Part shown: positions 30,745 to 37,272 of the stretch, one piece after another
Numbering within the stretch: the stretch's first letter is position 1
Layout: each line of letters opens with the position of its first letter
From: Lachnospiraceae bacterium
Lineage (GTDB): Bacteria; Bacillota; Clostridia; Lachnospirales; Lachnospiraceae
Length of the DNA: 64,000 nucleotides
Assembly: GCA_022483465.1 (NCBI GenBank)
Contig: JAKVNF010000001.1
Coordinates: forward strand, 992,001-1,056,000
Direction: 5' to 3'
Notes under the pieces: generated by a model
The model's input: the letters and a program-made list of their open reading frames with translations, nothing else
Databases searched by the model: none
Told to the model about the DNA's origin: nothing
Made by a program: the position numbers and the translations under genes

Positions 30745-31478
30745 GTCACGTTGCGTCCTGCTTCATCTGCCGCTTCTTCTCGTACATCCGCCGGTCCGCC
30801 AGGCGGAAGAGCTCCGCGGCGGGTGCCTCCTTCGTGGAGGCAGCGCCCCAGGCCGCCCGCACCGGAATGCCGTGTTCGATGGTCAGGCTCCCCTCCAGCC
30901 TCTTTTGGAGGATGCGGTCGAACCGGTCCATCTCTGCGGCCGCTTTCCCCGTCACCATCGCGAGGAACTCATCCCCGCCCATCCGGTAGACTGTCCCATC
31001 TTCGCCGAAGGCCTCCTGGATCTGCCCGGCGGCGGCCCGGATCAGCTGGTCCCCCACCGCATGTCCGTAGGTGTCATAATGAATACAGGCGCGGAAACCC
31101 CGCCGCTTGCAGCGGGGAGGAGCGCCGTCCCCCTTTCTCAAATAAAAGCTCCGGCATGATTCAATATCCGCAGCTTACTGACAGATACGTTTTTGCCTGA
31201 ATTCAGTACAACCGCTGTGCCGTGGTTGTGTGTTCCAACTGCAACATAGGTATGCTTTTTATACATTACCTGTGTTCCCGGCTGAATCGGGTAACGCTGC
31301 TTTCGAACTGCGATACGTCCTTTGCTTACCTTTTTGCCACGAAAGATCCGAAAGTTCTTTTTCCCATAGGCGTTAGTAAGAAAACGGGTTGATAAGCTCC
31401 AAAGCATTTTAGCAGAAGTATAAAATATGCCGTTTTGTACATTCTGCTGTACAACGGCCTTCTCTAACTTGAACTACA

Positions 31479-31505
31479 ATAGTCTTGCCAGGAGGGCAAG
31501 ACTAT
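31479..31505 (+). promoter_or_regulatory. hairpin hiding the transposase ribosome binding site
   Basis: ATAGTCTTGCC (31479-31489) pairs perfectly with GGCAAGACTAT (31495-31505). The five-base loop AGGAG is the ribosome binding site and the start codon ATG (31504) begins within the stem. The same hairpin precedes the transposase in copy 1 (around 24958-24984). It should lower translation. Confidence 0.7.
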
Positions 31506-32532
31506 GAGCTGCATTGAGCGCATACTGACCGAAGCCAGAGATCTTTCCAGGGACGACCTGATTCTTCTTGTTAACAAGCTCATGGAGGGCTTCTCCCATG
31601 AGAGTGCAACCTCTTCTCCGAAGAAGATGATTGCTCCCCGTTTGGATTGTCCGATCTGCCATTCCAATGCTCATGTTGTTAGGAATGGACACAAACATGG
31701 AAAACAGGCATACATCTGCAGGCAATGTGGAACGTCATTTGTTACAACGAGCAACACTTTGCTCTCAGGCTCACACTTTGGTACTGAGATCTGGACCAAG
31801 GTTCTGGAAGAGACGCTCAGGGGGACCTCTCTGGATAAGACGGTCAAGTCACTTGCCAGCCATGGATGCAAGATCAGCCATAGCAGTCTGTTCTTCATGC
31901 GGCATAAGATCATGCTTGCTCTCGAGGACATGCAGGTGGAGCAGCCAGCCACGGTGGAAGATGTCGTGGAAGCGGATGAAACCTACGTTCCGGAGTCCAA
32001 AAAAGGTACGAAATTTGGCCCTGATGCCAGTCGAAAGCCCCGCAAGCGTGGCACTCCCGCATCCAAACGCGGCCTTTCAGACGAGCAGATCTGTATCTGC
32101 ACCGCAGTACAGCGCAAGACTGGCGATCTGATCGTGAAATCCGAGAACCGGGCAAGGCCTTCCAGTGCAAATGTTGTTGATATCTATACTGGTCATGTCC
32201 AGAAGGGCACACTTTTCCTGACGGACGGCATGAATGTGTATCCGAGGCTGGGCAAGATCCTGGGAATCACGGTCATGAATGTGAAGAAGGAGTCGGCAGG
32301 TTTCTTCAATCTGAACACTGTGAACAACCTTCACTCTTTTATCAAGCGCCGATATACCGAATATCGCGGTGTCGCCACCAAGTATTTGAACCGTTACAAC
32401 CTCGTATTCAGGGCAGCGTACAGGCAGAGGACAACGATTGGGGAACTTGCGGAAACTCTCTTTGCATCCAGGAATCCCAAGAAGGTACACCATTATGGAG
32501 ATGTTAAGGAGCTCAATCTGCTTGCAATTTGA
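31504..32532 (+). CDS. IS1595-family transposase, copy 2
   Basis: 342 residues, nearly identical to copy 1, with an intact zinc ribbon (CPICHSNAH, CRQCGTSF) and DDE core (VEADETYV, LTDGMNVY). It is transcribed opposite to the interrupted iscB. A handful of residue differences from copy 1 (SAGFF for SASFF, AETLFA for ADALFA) show the two copies are not the product of one very recent event. Confidence 0.92.
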   Translation: MSCIERILTEARDLSRDDLILLVNKLMEGFSHESATSSPKKMIAPRLDCPICHSNAHVVRNGHKHGKQAYICRQCGTSFVTTSNTLLSGSHFGTEIWTKVLEETLRGTSLDKTVKSLASHGCKISHSSLFFMRHKIMLALEDMQVEQPATVEDVVEADETYVPESKKGTKFGPDASRKPRKRGTPASKRGLSDEQICICTAVQRKTGDLIVKSENRARPSSANVVDIYTGHVQKGTLFLTDGMNVYPRLGKILGITVMNVKKESAGFFNLNTVNNLHSFIKRRYTEYRGVATKYLNRYNLVFRAAYRQRTTIGELAETLFASRNPKKVHHYGDVKELNLLAI

Positions 32533-33730
32533 TGACTACAAGATGCACTTATTGCTTATCAACCCGTTTTCTTACTAACGCCTTCCCATTTCGAGGCTCT
32601 GAACGGTTTGTTCTGCCACAGGACAGATCTGATCCGGACTTTTTGACACCATCCCCGATATCAATATACTTCGCGTCATAAAACTTCGATAAAACGCGAT
32701 TATTGCGGCGTCTCTTTTTCAGAAGCTGTTCCGTCGCTCTGTGCACCGGCTGAAACGCTCCCATACAATAGGCATCATTTGCATGCGTCTTGGCAAGGGA
32801 GTGATCCCGACGTGACAGCTTTGTATATGCTCCATACGTGGTATGCACAGTCAGACTGGAATCCAAGTCTTTGACAGCCTGCACAATTTTCCACCGCACG
32901 GTGTTCATAAATGCCGCACCGGTCAGAGGCTTCATCTTTGGCTTCCAGCCATATAGTTTGCCACTTTTTTTGTGGTTTGCCGCCGTATGGCATTTCGTGC
33001 AGACCGTAATCAGGTTGCTCATCCGGTCTGTATGATCGGAGGGTGTTTTCCAGTAACCGATATGGTGCACACGCAGAATCCGTCCATCTTCGATCCCCTT
33101 GCCGCAGCATTGGCATTTGTAGCCGTCACGATAAAATACCGCTTCACGAAGTGTTGCATTACCGTAACGGACTCCATGCTGATAGTCTGATCCTTCCGGA
33201 ATTGGCAGGCCCTTTTCCTTTGCCTCAAGTATCTGTGTATCGAATGTCCCTACTTCAAGGTATACATCACGAATCGGCAGTACCTTTTGGAACGTGGATA
33301 CAAGACGCACATGGATATCCGCTTTATGCTGAAGTGAGGGTGCAAGCCATCCGGGCTTCTTGGAGTGTGTGCGATTGTCGAACCTCGGTTCACGATACCG
33401 GAGACGGTTTCGTCTTGTGCGGCGGTACCGTCTCTGTGCATCGTGATGCTGCTTCTCATCTGCAAGTGTATCGACCTGCAGATGGACAAACTCATGCTTT
33501 GTGCTCTTTACGGAGACACCAATATGCTGATAGCCGGTATCCTCGCAGAGTTCGACCTTCTGCGTATGCGGCGTTTTCTGATCCGGCAGAGCGTAGGTCA
33601 GCCGGATTGTAAATCCCGGCTTGTGGCCTGCAATGACTGCTCTGCCGCCCTTGAGCATCTGTCTCACCTTTTTGATGTTGTAGGTCGGCATCAGCGGTGA
33701 GCCGTCTGCAGCCAGTACATAAGTCAGCAT

Positions 33731-34174
33731 AACTGATGCCTCCTTTCTGAAAATCAAACAATCGTTACGGTGCCTTACGGCTTCCCGTGCTGTGTCTCCT
33801 CAGGGAAGGCATACACGGGGTTCTGCCTACAGGAGGCTCCTTCCCGGAGGAAGAAGCCCCGTTCGGCGGGTCCACATCGCCAATGTTGTCAGCAGTTTGT
33901 TGTGCATCACACTCCTCCTACCCTCAGAAATGTTTAGTGACACACCGCAGAGCAGTGGACTTGTGAGAGCATCCACTGGTGCCTGTGTTCACGAGCAGAC
34001 AAGCCGGAACTGATCTGCCGAATTTGCTGACAACGTAGCCCATCCGCAATCCGAAGGTTTTTGGACAGGCGTGAGGCTACTCACTCAGGACTGCGATGGT
34101 GCTGCAGTCCTCACGTTAGGCCGATGGGGCTGTGTTGCCACACAACCCCCACGGCTTGCCGTGGGGTTAGTGAG
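33731..34174 (-). ncRNA. candidate IscB omega RNA region
   Basis: 444 bases upstream of iscB inside the element hold no gene but many stems. These include 34147-34166, AGGACTGC/GCAGTCCT (34087-34111) and TGTG/CACA (34131-34142). IscB systems encode their guide RNA upstream of the protein, with the guide at its 5' end taken from sequence beside the left end. Here that flank is the cyclase codons for FDINGLKA. Exact RNA ends cannot be set by eye. Confidence 0.6.
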
Positions 34175-34305
34175 TTGCCGCCTTGAGTCCATTGATGTCA
34201 AACATGACCAGCGCCATGTTCTCCCCGGGCGCGACCTTCAGCCGGTCTCTCTCGTAGGCCGCCCGGTTGCCAAGGCCCGTGAGGCTGTCCCGGTAGGCGA
34301 GTTTT

Positions 34306-34497
34306 GTCAACTACTCACGACTAAAGCCGCGAGCTTGTAGAAAAGGCTTCCTATTCCGAAGAACAGGCTGCCCCTTCAACAACTTACCCGGATACAGCCG
34401 GCTCGCACAAGTCCCGCAGGAGCCTGTGTGGAGGTCAGCCAATTAGGGGGCGGTTATCCTAGCGAGTTGCCATGCTAGGGTGACATGTCAACAGTTA
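34306..34497 (-). ncRNA. candidate TnpB omega RNA (right end)
   Basis: The 192 bases after the tnpB stop are non-coding and stem-rich, ending in the right-end hairpin CTCACGACTAAAGCCGCGAG (34314-34333). TnpB guide RNAs overlap the 3' end of tnpB and run out of the element. The guide would then be the cyclase sequence AAAACTCGCCTACCGGGAC just outside. Confidence 0.6.
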
Positions 34498-35762
34498 CTA
34501 TGTTAAGGCTGTTTTGGCCGTAACAATCAATGCTTTGGCAAGGATATTCTGCGCCGCGTTCTGATCACGCATGTGGTGCGTACCGCATACAGGGCACGTC
34601 CATTCTCTGGCAGAAAGCGGCAGCATGTACTTGTCTTTCAGCACATGCCCGCAGTGGCTGCATGTCTGTGTTGTATATTGCGGGGAAACCAGAATAACGG
34701 TTTTGCCGTACATGTCTGCTTTCTGCTGCAATAACGAAAGCAGTGTGCGCCATCCTGCATCGCTGATGCTTTTTGCAAGGCAGTGATTTTTAAGAAGGTT
34801 GCGTACCTTTAAGTTTTCTGCGGCGATAAGGTCTTGGTTTTCGACCATGCGCTTGGAGATCACATTTAGATACTCGTCCCTCTGCCTTGCAATATGACGC
34901 TGCGTCTTGGCTAGTTTCCTGCGCTGTTTCTGATAGTTTTTGGCATCTGCCAGTTTTTCCCGTTTCGCTTGGCGGCTTCTGCCTTACGGGACAGGGAACG
35001 CTGCTGCTTTTCAATTCTGTGTTCTGATACTTTACGAAAACGCTTGTTTTCGATGGCGTTGCCGTCGGAATCGTTGGCAAGATCCAGCAGGTTAAGATCA
35101 ATGCCGCATTGTTTGCCGGTTTTTGGAAGGGTCTGCTTAAACGGTGTTTCGGATGATATCTGAAGCGATACCCAGTACTCACCGACAGCATCACGGCGAA
35201 TGGTAACTGTCCCGATTCTGGTATCCTCGTTATGCGATAACAGCATGTCCATGATTTTTGGAGAACCATCGCAGCGCACTTTTCCGAGCTTCGGCAGCAT
35301 AATGTGATGCCTGTCCACAAAGCGAACAGTGCCATCCGAAAAGCCTGTGCTTTGTGCGTTGTAGTGGCAGTTTGTCTGCCATGTCTGCTCGGCTGACTTT
35401 TTATGCAGTGCCGGTACACCTGTATGGCGTTCTTTCATGTTTTTCCATGCAGTCCGATAATTGCGGATACCATTTTCTACAGTCTGGCAGTCCACATCTT
35501 TTCCATAAAGATATGGCAGTGCATTCTTAATTGCAGCCGCATTGCAGGAAACACTCTTCAGATAAGCGATGCGATCTCTGTCAGCAGGAACAAAATCAGC
35601 GGTTTTCTTCAAGTGGTAAATCTCATTATTGCATGCCACCAGATGATTGTAGACAGAACGCTGCGCACCATCATTGACAGCAACAAGCCGCTTCCCCGCC
35701 TCAGATAAATGAAGTTTTAGCAATACGCCGATATGATATGGCATTTCAGAGCAAGCACGCAT
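34498..35762 (-). pseudogene. tnpB: TnpB RNA-guided nuclease gene with one frameshift
   Basis: From ATG 35762 the frame covers the N-terminal helical domain and RuvC-I (GIDLNLLDLAND, Asp near residue 222). It leaves the homologous frame near 34965 after SRKAEAAKR. The correct sequence continues in another frame (KREKLADAKNYQKQRRKLAK). It then runs through ISKRMVENQDLIAAENLKV (catalytic Glu), a zinc ribbon CSHCGH and CPVCGTHH, and MRDQNAAQNI (catalytic Asp) to 34498. All catalytic residues remain but in two frames, so the nuclease is probably dead unless a ribosomal shift occurs. Confidence 0.85.
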
Positions 35763-37272
35763 AACAGCTTCCTTTCGACTTGGCCGCTTACCTGTACCGT
35801 GATCTGCTACACACCAAATATGTCAGATTTTGGGGGAAAAAGCAAAGTTTTTCAATATTTTTTTGCCTCTGGCAGGCGAAACGGCTGAGCGCCAATTCCT
35901 CCCATGGTTAAAACCACGGGAATCCTTGGCGCAGTTTTTGAACAGCTCGCTCTGCGCGATCCGGTTTAAGTCCTCCTGGTACCGGTTGAACCAGGCGGCC
36001 AGGCAGAACAGGGACAGCACCAGCACCCCGAGGCTGAGAATCCGGGCATACCAGCGGGAGGTGGGGGCGAGGTAGTATGCCGACAGGCCGACAATCTCGC
36101 AGACAAAGTAGGCAAAGCACCCCGTCCGGATCTTCCGATGGCTCGGCTCCCGGTCCTTCGAGAGGTGCCGCAGCACGAGCAGCATCATGACGAGAAGGAG
36201 CAGGTGGTTGGAGAGCATATATCCATAGACGGAGACCACGCCGACAAGGTGCAAAAACAATCCCAGCGCCATGTTGCCAAGAAACAGTAGCTCCAGGCAG
36301 CGGATCACCCGCACATTCGGCAGCACGGTCACGAGGAACTGCAGAAAGAACACCGGCATCAGAAAAAAGCAGATGACGCTCACCATGGCGCCGAGATTGA
36401 CCCTGGCGGTCACGAGCTGCAGAATCTGGGAGTCAGTGAGGGCCCAGATGCCGGCACTGAGGAGAAACAGACCCAGCGACCCCGTGGAGAGGGACGGATC
36501 CACCTGTCTTCTGCGCTGCTGGATGCTGGCATACAGAAGGAAGGCCGCCACAAAGACGCAGAACAGAAAGAATAAGAGGGCGTAGAAGTTGGATGCCATC
36601 AGGCGCCGCTGCAGCGCCGCCTGGGTTCCCAGCAAAGAGGAGGCGTTCAAGGCCTCCAGCGTTTCCTCCGCGGCCTCGCCCTGAATCTGCAGCGTCCCGC
36701 CGGCACTGTCCTCGGGAAGGGGGATCCACTGGAAGGCGGTCGCGGCGTTGTCCGGCTCCACCCGGTAGATCTCCTCCCCGTCCACACTCACCGTATAGGC
36801 GCCCTCGATGCTGGAAAGCTGCAGCAGGCTTCCCCGCGGCAGATCCGCAGGAAGCTTGGTGACGAAGGTTCCCCCCTCGATGGTCCAGGTCCCGGACAGA
36901 TCGGTGATGGGGGCCGCCTGCATCATGGGTGTTGTGGTCTCTCCCGGCTCCTGCCCGACAAGGAGAATGACGGCAAATATGCCGACCAGAAGAAAGAGAA
37001 GGCGTCTTGCCGCCCTGCCGGGTTTTCTGCCGGCTGTGATTTGTCTGCTGCTGTCGTCTGCCATGGTCCTGTCCTTGAATATCTACCCTTTTGCTGTCCT
37101 GCCTGTTTCAGTTTCCATAGTAATCTGCGCATTATTCTACCCCATTCTACTAGTGCCGAAAACTACTCAAATGTGGTGGATTTTTCGCCCCGCACTTGCC
37201 CCCTTTACAAACGCCGCGGCAGCGGGCAAAATAGGGAACTGCGGCCAAGAAGCCGCTGTCAAAGGAGTTTTC

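What the first reader, a model, noticed from the sequence alone, without database searches (positions are those of the whole stretch)
30746..37064. One cyclase gene split by two different RNA-guided-nuclease elements, one of them split again
A 7TM-DISM/GGDEF gene is cut by a TnpB element (34306-35937) and, 131 bases further on, by an IscB element (31078-34174). The iscB gene is cut by an IS1595 copy. Removing all three restores a 1590-base open frame for the cyclase and a 1371-base frame for iscB. Two different OMEGA-type elements within 131 bases of one host gene is striking. It suggests the GGDEF core is a preferred or guided target.
Basis: seen in the sequence. Interest (0 to 1): 0.9.

Follow-up and report, generated by a model that had tools for sequence, protein, structure and literature searches.

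The report
Cyclase gene hit by three transposons
In a bacterial genome crowded with mobile DNA, one signalling gene was hit by two transposons that carry RNA-guided nucleases, one of which was itself hit by a third, and this looks like coincidence in a transposon-rich genome rather than guided targeting.

Summary
Confirmed to the base: a 529-residue GGDEF gene (minus strand) is cut by a TnpB element (34306-35937) and, 131 bp on, by an IscB element (31078-34174) whose iscB is cut by IS1595 (31369-32582). Joined flanks give one open GGDEF frame that aligns with intact homologues. Targets are TTCAA (TnpB) and ATGA (IscB); a full HEARO RNA marks the IscB left end. Guided targeting is not supported: guides of 14 of 14 other copies mismatch this site at 10 or more of 16 bases, and this locus's guides fit none of 30 GGDEF loci tested. 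The genome holds at least 10 full IscB elements, about 19 TnpB loci, 38 Y1 matches and at least 33 IS1595 copies; an IscB and a TnpB element within one gene length arise by chance in 17-71% of simulations (131 bp: 1.5-10%). Unlooked-for: 5 of 10 IscB copies sit exactly between a Shine-Dalgarno core and an ATGA start codon.

The parts
35938..37064 (-). 5' part of the host gene (N-terminal half up to ..SELF); ends with TTCAA (35938-35942), the target/TAM kept at the TnpB element's left end
34306..35937 (-). TnpB element without tnpA (1632 bp); 4 other copies in the genome, 3 of them with both ends
   Evidence: ends from copies L024-L027
34911..35762 (-). tnpB N-terminal frame (283 aa), broken by a frame change; copies L025 and L026 read 421 aa
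34498..34863 (-). tnpB C-terminal part (Cas12f1-like TNB domain) in another frame
34175..34305 (-). 131-bp host segment (KLAYRDSLTGLGNR...FDINGLKAAN); holds both predicted guides
34290..34305 (-). predicted TnpB guide (16 nt beyond the right end)
   Evidence: position by analogy with ISDra2 (PMC8612924 passages)
34175..34190 (-). predicted IscB guide (16 nt before the left end)
   Evidence: position recalled from the IscB literature; the HEARO match begins at 34174
31078..34174 (-). IscB (HEARO) element, 3097 bp with the nested IS1595
   Evidence: ends from 9 other copies with both ends
33865..34174 (-). HEARO RNA = IscB guide-RNA scaffold, complete
   Evidence: RF02033, 90.8 bits against gathering 83, model 1-211 of 211
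32549..33730 (-). iscB reading frame, 393 aa: about 383 native residues, then about 10 from IS1595; the last about 73 residues are cut off
   Evidence: NF040563, 275.9 bits; HNH and RRXRR domains
31369..32582 (+). IS1595-family insertion (1214 bp, 30-bp inverted ends); transposase 31504-32532
   Evidence: NF033547; ends; copies
31361..31368 (+). left target copy of IS1595 (TTCCCATA); right copy 32583-32590 (TTCCCATT), 7 of 8 alike
31138..31368 (-). severed 3' end of iscB (C-terminal part)
31074..31077 (-). ATGA kept at the right end of the IscB element (target/TAM)
   Evidence: present in 10 of 10 IscB copies with a right end; host origin from the restored frame
30746..31077 (-). 3' part of the host gene (MGGDEF motif to the stop)
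   Evidence: Pfam GGDEF 62.9 bits

Best explanation
The gene was inactivated by ordinary single-strand transposition of two unrelated elements of IS200/IS605 type that lack their own transposase, each landing at its own short target (TTCAA for the TnpB element, ATGA for the IscB element), probably moved in trans by Y1 transposases of this genome (inferred). The two events are independent; once the gene was dead, the second insertion cost nothing. Each element then took its guide from the flanking cyclase DNA, so both predicted guides lie at opposite ends of one 131-bp stub. IS1595, a multiplied DDE element, hit the iscB 3' end, at a place also hit in a second IscB copy (L014). Shown: anatomy, ends, targets, copy numbers, restored frame. 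Inferred: mobilisation in trans, order of events, neutrality of the second hit, guide position and use.
For: Element ends agree with other copies, with ATGA and TTCAA constant and no further shared flank seen; HEARO begins at the last base of the IscB element; the joined frame is restored; none of the other IscB or TnpB-element sites examined is in a GGDEF domain (9 IscB and 3 TnpB sites with both flanks, plus one partial copy of each); 38 Y1 matches, at least 33 IS1595 copies; guides of the other copies do not fit this site; random placement of 13 IscB and 19 TnpB loci gives a pair within 1590 bp in 0.17 / 0.45 / 0.71 of trials and within 131 bp in 0.015 / 0.047 / 0.097, for tolerant genome fractions 1 / 0.3 / 0.15. 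TnpA inserts at the target and the guide is read from the flank in ISDra2 (PMC8612924, passages).
Against: An IS605 in a second GGDEF domain of the same genome: 3 of about 33 OMEGA insertions against 0.12 expected, P 2.4e-4 for three sites or 0.006 for two genes, uncorrected for post-hoc choice. A further IS605 (L079) lies next to, not in, a GGDEF gene (363 bp before its open frame). IS1595, without guides, shows 0 of 31 sites in a GGDEF domain; against 3 of 24 OMEGA sites the difference is not significant (Fisher 0.08 by site, 0.18 by gene).
Confidence: 0.82

Rival explanations
1. GGDEF genes are a preferred landing region because they are many and dispensable (39 domain matches here): insertions there survive selection. 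No guide is involved. (Compatible with the best explanation; it adds a bias.)
For: Second GGDEF gene with an IS605; 39 GGDEF matches; 3 of about 33 OMEGA loci against 0.12 expected.
Against: IS1595 should show it too and does not (0 of 31, not significant); ATGA is not denser in GGDEF domains than in their flanks, TTCAA and TTTAA about 1.5 times denser on 24 and 6 occurrences; no interrupted GGDEF frame in 35 IscB-relative loci. Dispensability was not tested.
Confidence: 0.4
2. Guided targeting: TnpB or IscB with a guide against GGDEF sequence cut the empty gene and the element was copied in by repair (homing between related genes).
For: Both predicted guides of this locus lie in sequence coding for conserved GGDEF motifs; homing into the same empty allele is the published proposal for TnpB (PMC8612924, passages).
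Against: No other copy has a guide for this site (14 of 14 with 10 or more of 16 mismatches); none of 30 GGDEF loci fits this locus's guides; copying by repair should carry flanking donor DNA, and the flanks of the copies share nothing evident beyond the target.
Confidence: 0.03
3. The nested IscB+IS1595 moved as one composite (an iscB-dead element mobilised in trans), since copy L014 carries the same IS1595 at the same place.
For: Same site and orientation, 0 of 1214 differences in the IS, an identical iscB tract of 836 alignment columns next to it, one allele found only in these two of the ten copies.
Against: Junctions differ by one base (8-bp target with one mismatch here, 9-bp target in L014; 9-bp matches also occur in 5 other copies); the backbones differ at 31 sites while the IS copies differ at none; L015, without IS1595, is slightly closer to the window copy (28 differences) and shares the identical tract. 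Two independent hits or gene conversion fit as well.
Confidence: 0.4
4. Assembly join of three unrelated segments.
For: All inserted elements are multi-copy repeats; no reads were available.
Against: Frame and motif are restored at both host joins; contig of 1.62 Mb, 4 contigs in all, 99.8% complete and 2.2% contaminated.
Confidence: 0.03

Closest known systems
IscB / HEARO elements (IS200/IS605 superfamily; OMEGA)
   Same: IscB protein (NF040563), complete HEARO RNA at the left end, constant ATGA at the right end
   Different: No tnpA in the element; this copy lost the C-terminal part of IscB to IS1595
TnpB elements of IS200/IS605 type (ISDra2 as model)
   Same: TnpB family (NF040570), short target at the left end (TTCAA here, TTGAT in ISDra2)
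   Different: No tnpA in the element; tnpB frameshifted in this copy and cut short in L024
IS1595 family
   Same: IS1595 transposase, inverted ends, target duplication of 8 (or 9) bp in this genome
   Different: Nothing notable
Diguanylate cyclases with a membrane N-terminal half (GGDEF)
   Same: Complete GGDEF domain with the MGGDEF motif; distant homologues in genus and order
   Different: Disrupted twice; the N-terminal half has no Pfam match over its cut-off

Membership tests
IscB (OMEGA) | IscB protein family match with HNH domain | tested here: met
   NF040563 275.9 bits (cut-off 175), PF01844, PF14239
IscB (OMEGA) | HEARO guide-RNA scaffold just upstream of iscB | tested here: met
   RF02033 90.8 bits, full model
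IscB (OMEGA) | Intact C-terminal (TAM-interacting) part | tested here: not met
   393 aa against 456 aa in uninterrupted copies; IS1595 cuts it. That the C-terminal part reads the TAM is from PMC9755519 (passages)
IscB (OMEGA) | RNA-guided DNA cleavage | not testable with these tools
   needs biochemistry
TnpB of IS200/IS605 type | TnpB family match | tested here: met
   NF040570, 116.3 and 127.4 bits for the two pieces
TnpB of IS200/IS605 type | One intact tnpB frame | tested here: not met
   283 aa then a frame change; L025 and L026 read 421 aa
IS200/IS605 element | Insertion next to a fixed short target, without target duplication | tested here: met
   ATGA at 10 of 10 IscB right ends, TTCAA at 4 of 4 TnpB-element left ends; host origin and absence of a repeat shown by the restored cyclase frame
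IS200/IS605 element | Y1 transposase gene in the element | tested here: not met
   none of the 38 Y1 matches listed lies in the window's two elements
IS1595 | IS1595 transposase and inverted ends | tested here: met
   NF033547 116.6 bits; 30-bp ends, 100%
IS1595 | 8-bp target duplication | tested here: inconclusive
   7 of 8 in the window copy; other copies show 8 or 9 bp, three show none
GGDEF diguanylate cyclase | Complete GGDEF domain with signature motif in the joined frame | tested here: met
   PF00990 89.3 bits, 1-159 of 161; MGGDEF
7TMR-DISM receptor | Pfam 7TMR-DISM domains in the N-terminal half | tested here: not met
   no such match at E up to 1 for the joined protein; homologue L011 has E 0.49 only

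The most novel reading that the evidence does not exclude
IscB/HEARO elements are start-codon insertion elements: their ATGA target is very often the initiation codon plus one base, so the element lies between Shine-Dalgarno core and start codon, its guide RNA is a piece of the ribosome-binding site, and guide and iscB are transcribed from the captured gene's promoter, which would explain why the copies examined here point the same way as the gene they hit. The cyclase copy would belong to the in-gene minority, and GGDEF genes would be tolerated landing sites.
Probability: 0.4. Interest if true: 0.5.

Novelty: new member of a known kind. Interest (0 to 1): 0.36.

Why it matters
The triple insertion gives a clean read-out of the target rules of two OMEGA families in one genome, but as two hits on one gene it is close to chance. 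If the start-codon bias of IscB elements holds, it bears on a testable question: how an element whose guide lies outside its own left end gets that guide transcribed, and whether ribosome-binding-site guides expose other genes to cleavage.

Tried and rejected
Guided homing between GGDEF genes: disfavoured by guide comparisons in both directions. GGDEF target density as the cause: ATGA 3.88 against 4.26 in flanks, TTCAA 0.96 against 0.61, TTTAA 0.24 against 0.16 per kb and strand, on 97, 24 and 6 occurrences in the domains. Empty site at nucleotide level: none found; distant homologues in 4 of the 60 other genomes searched, and the named-genome scan with the host protein confirmed no relative. 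Same elements in GGDEF genes of relatives: 35 IscB-relative loci L158-L192 gave one GGDEF frame, in L191, about 550 bp beyond the IscB match and apparently whole (the other 27 weaker loci were not scanned); 15 loci of other genomes of the genus (IscB, TnpB or IS605 matches, several of them short or at contig ends) gave one GGDEF frame, ending about 600 bp before the IscB end in L104. IS1595 at one place in two IscB copies: composite transfer, double hit and gene conversion could not be separated. Order of the TnpB and IscB insertions: not determinable. An Rfam hit to a human lncRNA family (E 0.27, below gathering) was set aside as chance. An alignment that placed the IS badly was replaced by a direct junction comparison.

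Rows dropped or limits: one search scored 40 of 183 candidates, at most 5 per genome, at most 11, so copy numbers are lower bounds (an IscB right-end fragment in L153, outside the GGDEF genes there, appeared only). The IS1595 census found 32 sites with exact ends, L145 being missed by the motif; one search uses 31 (window copy left out, nested copy in L014 kept). The OMEGA total of about 33 is 24 sites, 8 loci (L080, L081, L082, L089, L140, L148, L149, L150) scanned only as whole loci, and the L153 fragment; the Fisher test uses the 24. The SD|ATGA rule was set after seeing the sites. One search treats sites as independent and uniform. One search uses 26 left ends: 14 HEARO matches and 12, out of 36 loci searched; two pairs come from one genome each.
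Full report
What is there. On the minus strand a gene of 529 codons (N-terminal half that looks membrane-spanning by eye, C-terminal GGDEF domain) is present in three pieces: 37064-35938, 34305-34175 and 31077-30746. Between pieces one and two lies a TnpB element (34306-35937); between two and three an IscB element (31078-34174); inside iscB lies an IS1595 element (31369-32582). Joining the host pieces restores 1590 nt without a stop and one GGDEF domain of 89.3 bits (62.9 bits for the 3' piece alone). Alignment with three intact homologues from the genus (25-28% identity; L010, L011, L013) has no gap at either join: ELF|KKLAYRDSLTGLGNR and NGLKAA|NDTYGH. Pfam gives no 7TMR-DISM match for the joined protein.

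Ends and targets. The outer ends were fixed by comparison with other copies in the same genome. All 11 IscB left ends seen begin with the same bases, all 10 right ends carry ATGA, and the flanks beyond share nothing evident. All four TnpB-element left ends seen carry TTCAA, and all five right ends read TTGAC. Since ATGA and TTCAA are in every copy, their host origin is shown not by the copies but by the cyclase frame, which is restored when they count as host. Single-sided short targets without duplication are the rule for IS200/IS605 elements; in ISDra2 the transposase inserts 3' of TTGAT and a guide of about 16 nt is read from the DNA beyond the right end (PMC8612924, passages). The Rfam HEARO model, the scaffold of the IscB guide RNA, matches 33865-34174 in full, beginning at the last base of the element. 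The 131-bp host stub therefore carries the predicted TnpB guide at one end and the predicted IscB guide at the other (TnpB placement from ISDra2, IscB placement recalled; neither measured). Published IscB targets include NTAAA and NWRGNA (PMC13180657, passages); the ATGA target here is inferred from insertion sites only.

State of the parts. tnpB in this copy is frameshifted (283 aa) and in L024 stops at 298 aa; L025 and L026 read 421 aa but carry a further insertion of about 1650 bp at the tnpB stop codon. iscB here is 393 aa instead of 456, having lost its C-terminal part, where the TAM-interacting domain lies in studied relatives (PMC9755519, passages). By open frame six other copies (L016-L021) are uninterrupted, L015 stops at 405 aa, L023 carries another insertion, and L014 carries the same IS1595.

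Nested IS1595. It is 1214 bp. Of 8 other copies compared base by base outside IscB, 6 are identical and 2 differ at 16-17 positions. Copy L014 carries it at the same place in the same orientation, identical, but with a 9-bp target (AATGGGAAA), while the window has 8 bp with one mismatch; 9-bp matches also occur in 5 of the other copies listed. The two element backbones differ at 31 positions, and L015, which lacks IS1595, is slightly closer to the window copy (28), sharing an identical tract of 836 columns with both. Composite transfer, independent hits at a favoured site and gene conversion all remain open.

Is the double hit more than chance? The genome (4.30 Mb, 4 contigs) holds at least 10 IscB elements of this family with both ends, 25 TnpB matches at about 19 loci, 17 IscB matches, 38 Y1-transposase matches and at least 33 full IS1595 copies. 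Random placement of 13 IscB and 19 TnpB loci gives a pair within 1590 bp in 17%, 45% or 71% of trials, and within 131 bp in 1.5%, 4.7% or 9.7%, if 100%, 30% or 15% of the genome tolerates insertions. Two OMEGA elements in one gene are thus unremarkable here; 131 bp is mildly unusual.

Is GGDEF a guided target? The guides of 10 of 10 other IscB copies and 4 of 4 other TnpB copies mismatch this site at 10 or more of 16 positions; anywhere in the 763-bp joined site, without asking for a TAM, the best for the IscB guides is 4 to 6 mismatches. This locus's guides with their TAMs find nothing better than 5 (IscB) or 7 (TnpB) mismatches in 30 of 39 GGDEF matches; other loci of the genome gave 6.

Is GGDEF a preferred target? 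None of the other IscB and TnpB-element sites examined lies in a GGDEF domain. But an autonomous IS605 (tnpA+tnpB, 1961 bp, target TTTAA) lies inside the GGDEF domain of a GGDEF-EAL gene at G000:C2:388912-390872; joining its flanks gives SSWTVLF-LNLSGFRSYNDD in one frame. Another IS605 (L079) lies next to a GGDEF gene, 363 bp before its open frame. So 3 insertions in 2 genes among about 33 OMEGA loci fall in sequence that makes up 0.354% of the genome (expected 0.12; P 2.4e-4 by site, 0.006 by gene). This was looked for after the finding; if only 15% of the genome tolerates insertions the figures are 0.04 and 0.18. Of 31 IS1595 sites none is in a GGDEF domain; against 3 of 24 OMEGA sites this is not significant (Fisher 0.08 by site, 0.18 by gene). 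In 35 IscB-relative loci of other genomes no interrupted GGDEF frame was found. I take this as weak evidence that GGDEF genes, numerous and perhaps redundant, tolerate insertions.

An unlooked-for pattern. The IscB element's ATGA target often is a start codon. In 5 of 10 copies with both flanks (L014, L018, L020, L021, L023) the empty site reads Shine-Dalgarno core, spacer, ATGA with an open frame of 80 codons or more; by the same rule 60 of 1241 ATGA sites qualify in 13 stretches of this genome, window included (4.8%; binomial P 5e-5; rule set after seeing the sites). Frames that start at that ATG have Pfam matches over the cut-off in L018, L021 and L023, a weak lactonase match below it in L020, and none in L014. 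Direction: the frame hit or preceded runs the same way as iscB in all 7 copies where Pfam supports it over the cut-off (window, L015, L016, L017, L018, L021, L023), which has P 0.016 against even odds (own arithmetic); L014, L019 and L020 agree by eye only, and some sites have longer open frames on the other strand. In other genomes 8 of 26 HEARO left ends have GGAG or GAGG at -16 to -4, against 7.6% of upstream positions (P 5e-4); 18 of 26 do not. Searches for print on this (1 paper, 15 of 4,295 listed, 12 of 23 listed) showed nothing on it in the listed titles and abstract starts; the library lacks most subscription papers. I recall, without a call, that the original HEARO description named ATGA or GTGA as the site, so the motif itself is probably known.

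Source. The closest named IscB relative found is in an uncultured Lachnospiraceae MAG, isolate RUG285 (93% identity, L158). Searches for IscB or TnpB elements in diguanylate cyclase genes, or nested in one gene (4 papers, 12 of 153 listed) showed nothing of the kind in the listed titles and abstract starts. PMC11870625 (abstract and outline) describes TnpB as a gene drive for IS copies in plasmids, consistent with retention rather than choice of site.

Verdict. Observation confirmed; guided targeting not supported; a weak, post-hoc excess in GGDEF domains remains; the locus is a new case of known kinds of element.

Noticed in passing
L014, L018, L020, L021, L023 (IscB copies elsewhere in the genome): 5 of 10 IscB elements lie exactly between a Shine-Dalgarno core and an ATGA start codon, against 4.8% of ATGA sites; 8 of 26 HEARO left ends in other genomes show such a core.
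   Followed up: partly
L078:1413-3373 (G000:C2:388912-390872): Complete IS605 (tnpA+tnpB) inside the GGDEF domain of a GGDEF-EAL gene, a second GGDEF gene hit by an OMEGA element.
   Followed up: yes
L014:1584-4680: Second IscB element with the same IS1595 at the same site, junction off by one base.
   Followed up: partly
L025 and L026 (TnpB-element copies): Both carry a further insertion of about 1650 bp at the tnpB stop codon, which separates tnpB from its right end; L026 has yet another insertion near its left end.
   Followed up: no
IS1595 copies L118-L147: The element makes target duplications of 8 or 9 bp; three copies (L121, L124, L143) have unmatched flanks, suggesting recombination between copies.
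   Followed up: no
L015: IscB copy whose flanks look mismatched: end of a glycosidase-like frame with a ribosome-binding-site-like stretch on one side (by eye), inside of a hexapeptide transferase frame (Pfam) on the other, possibly a rearrangement between copies.
   Followed up: no
L104 (another species of the genus): IscB element in a frame that reads like a RelA/SpoT-type enzyme (name recalled from the sequence, no family search), about 600 bp after a GGDEF frame.
   Followed up: no
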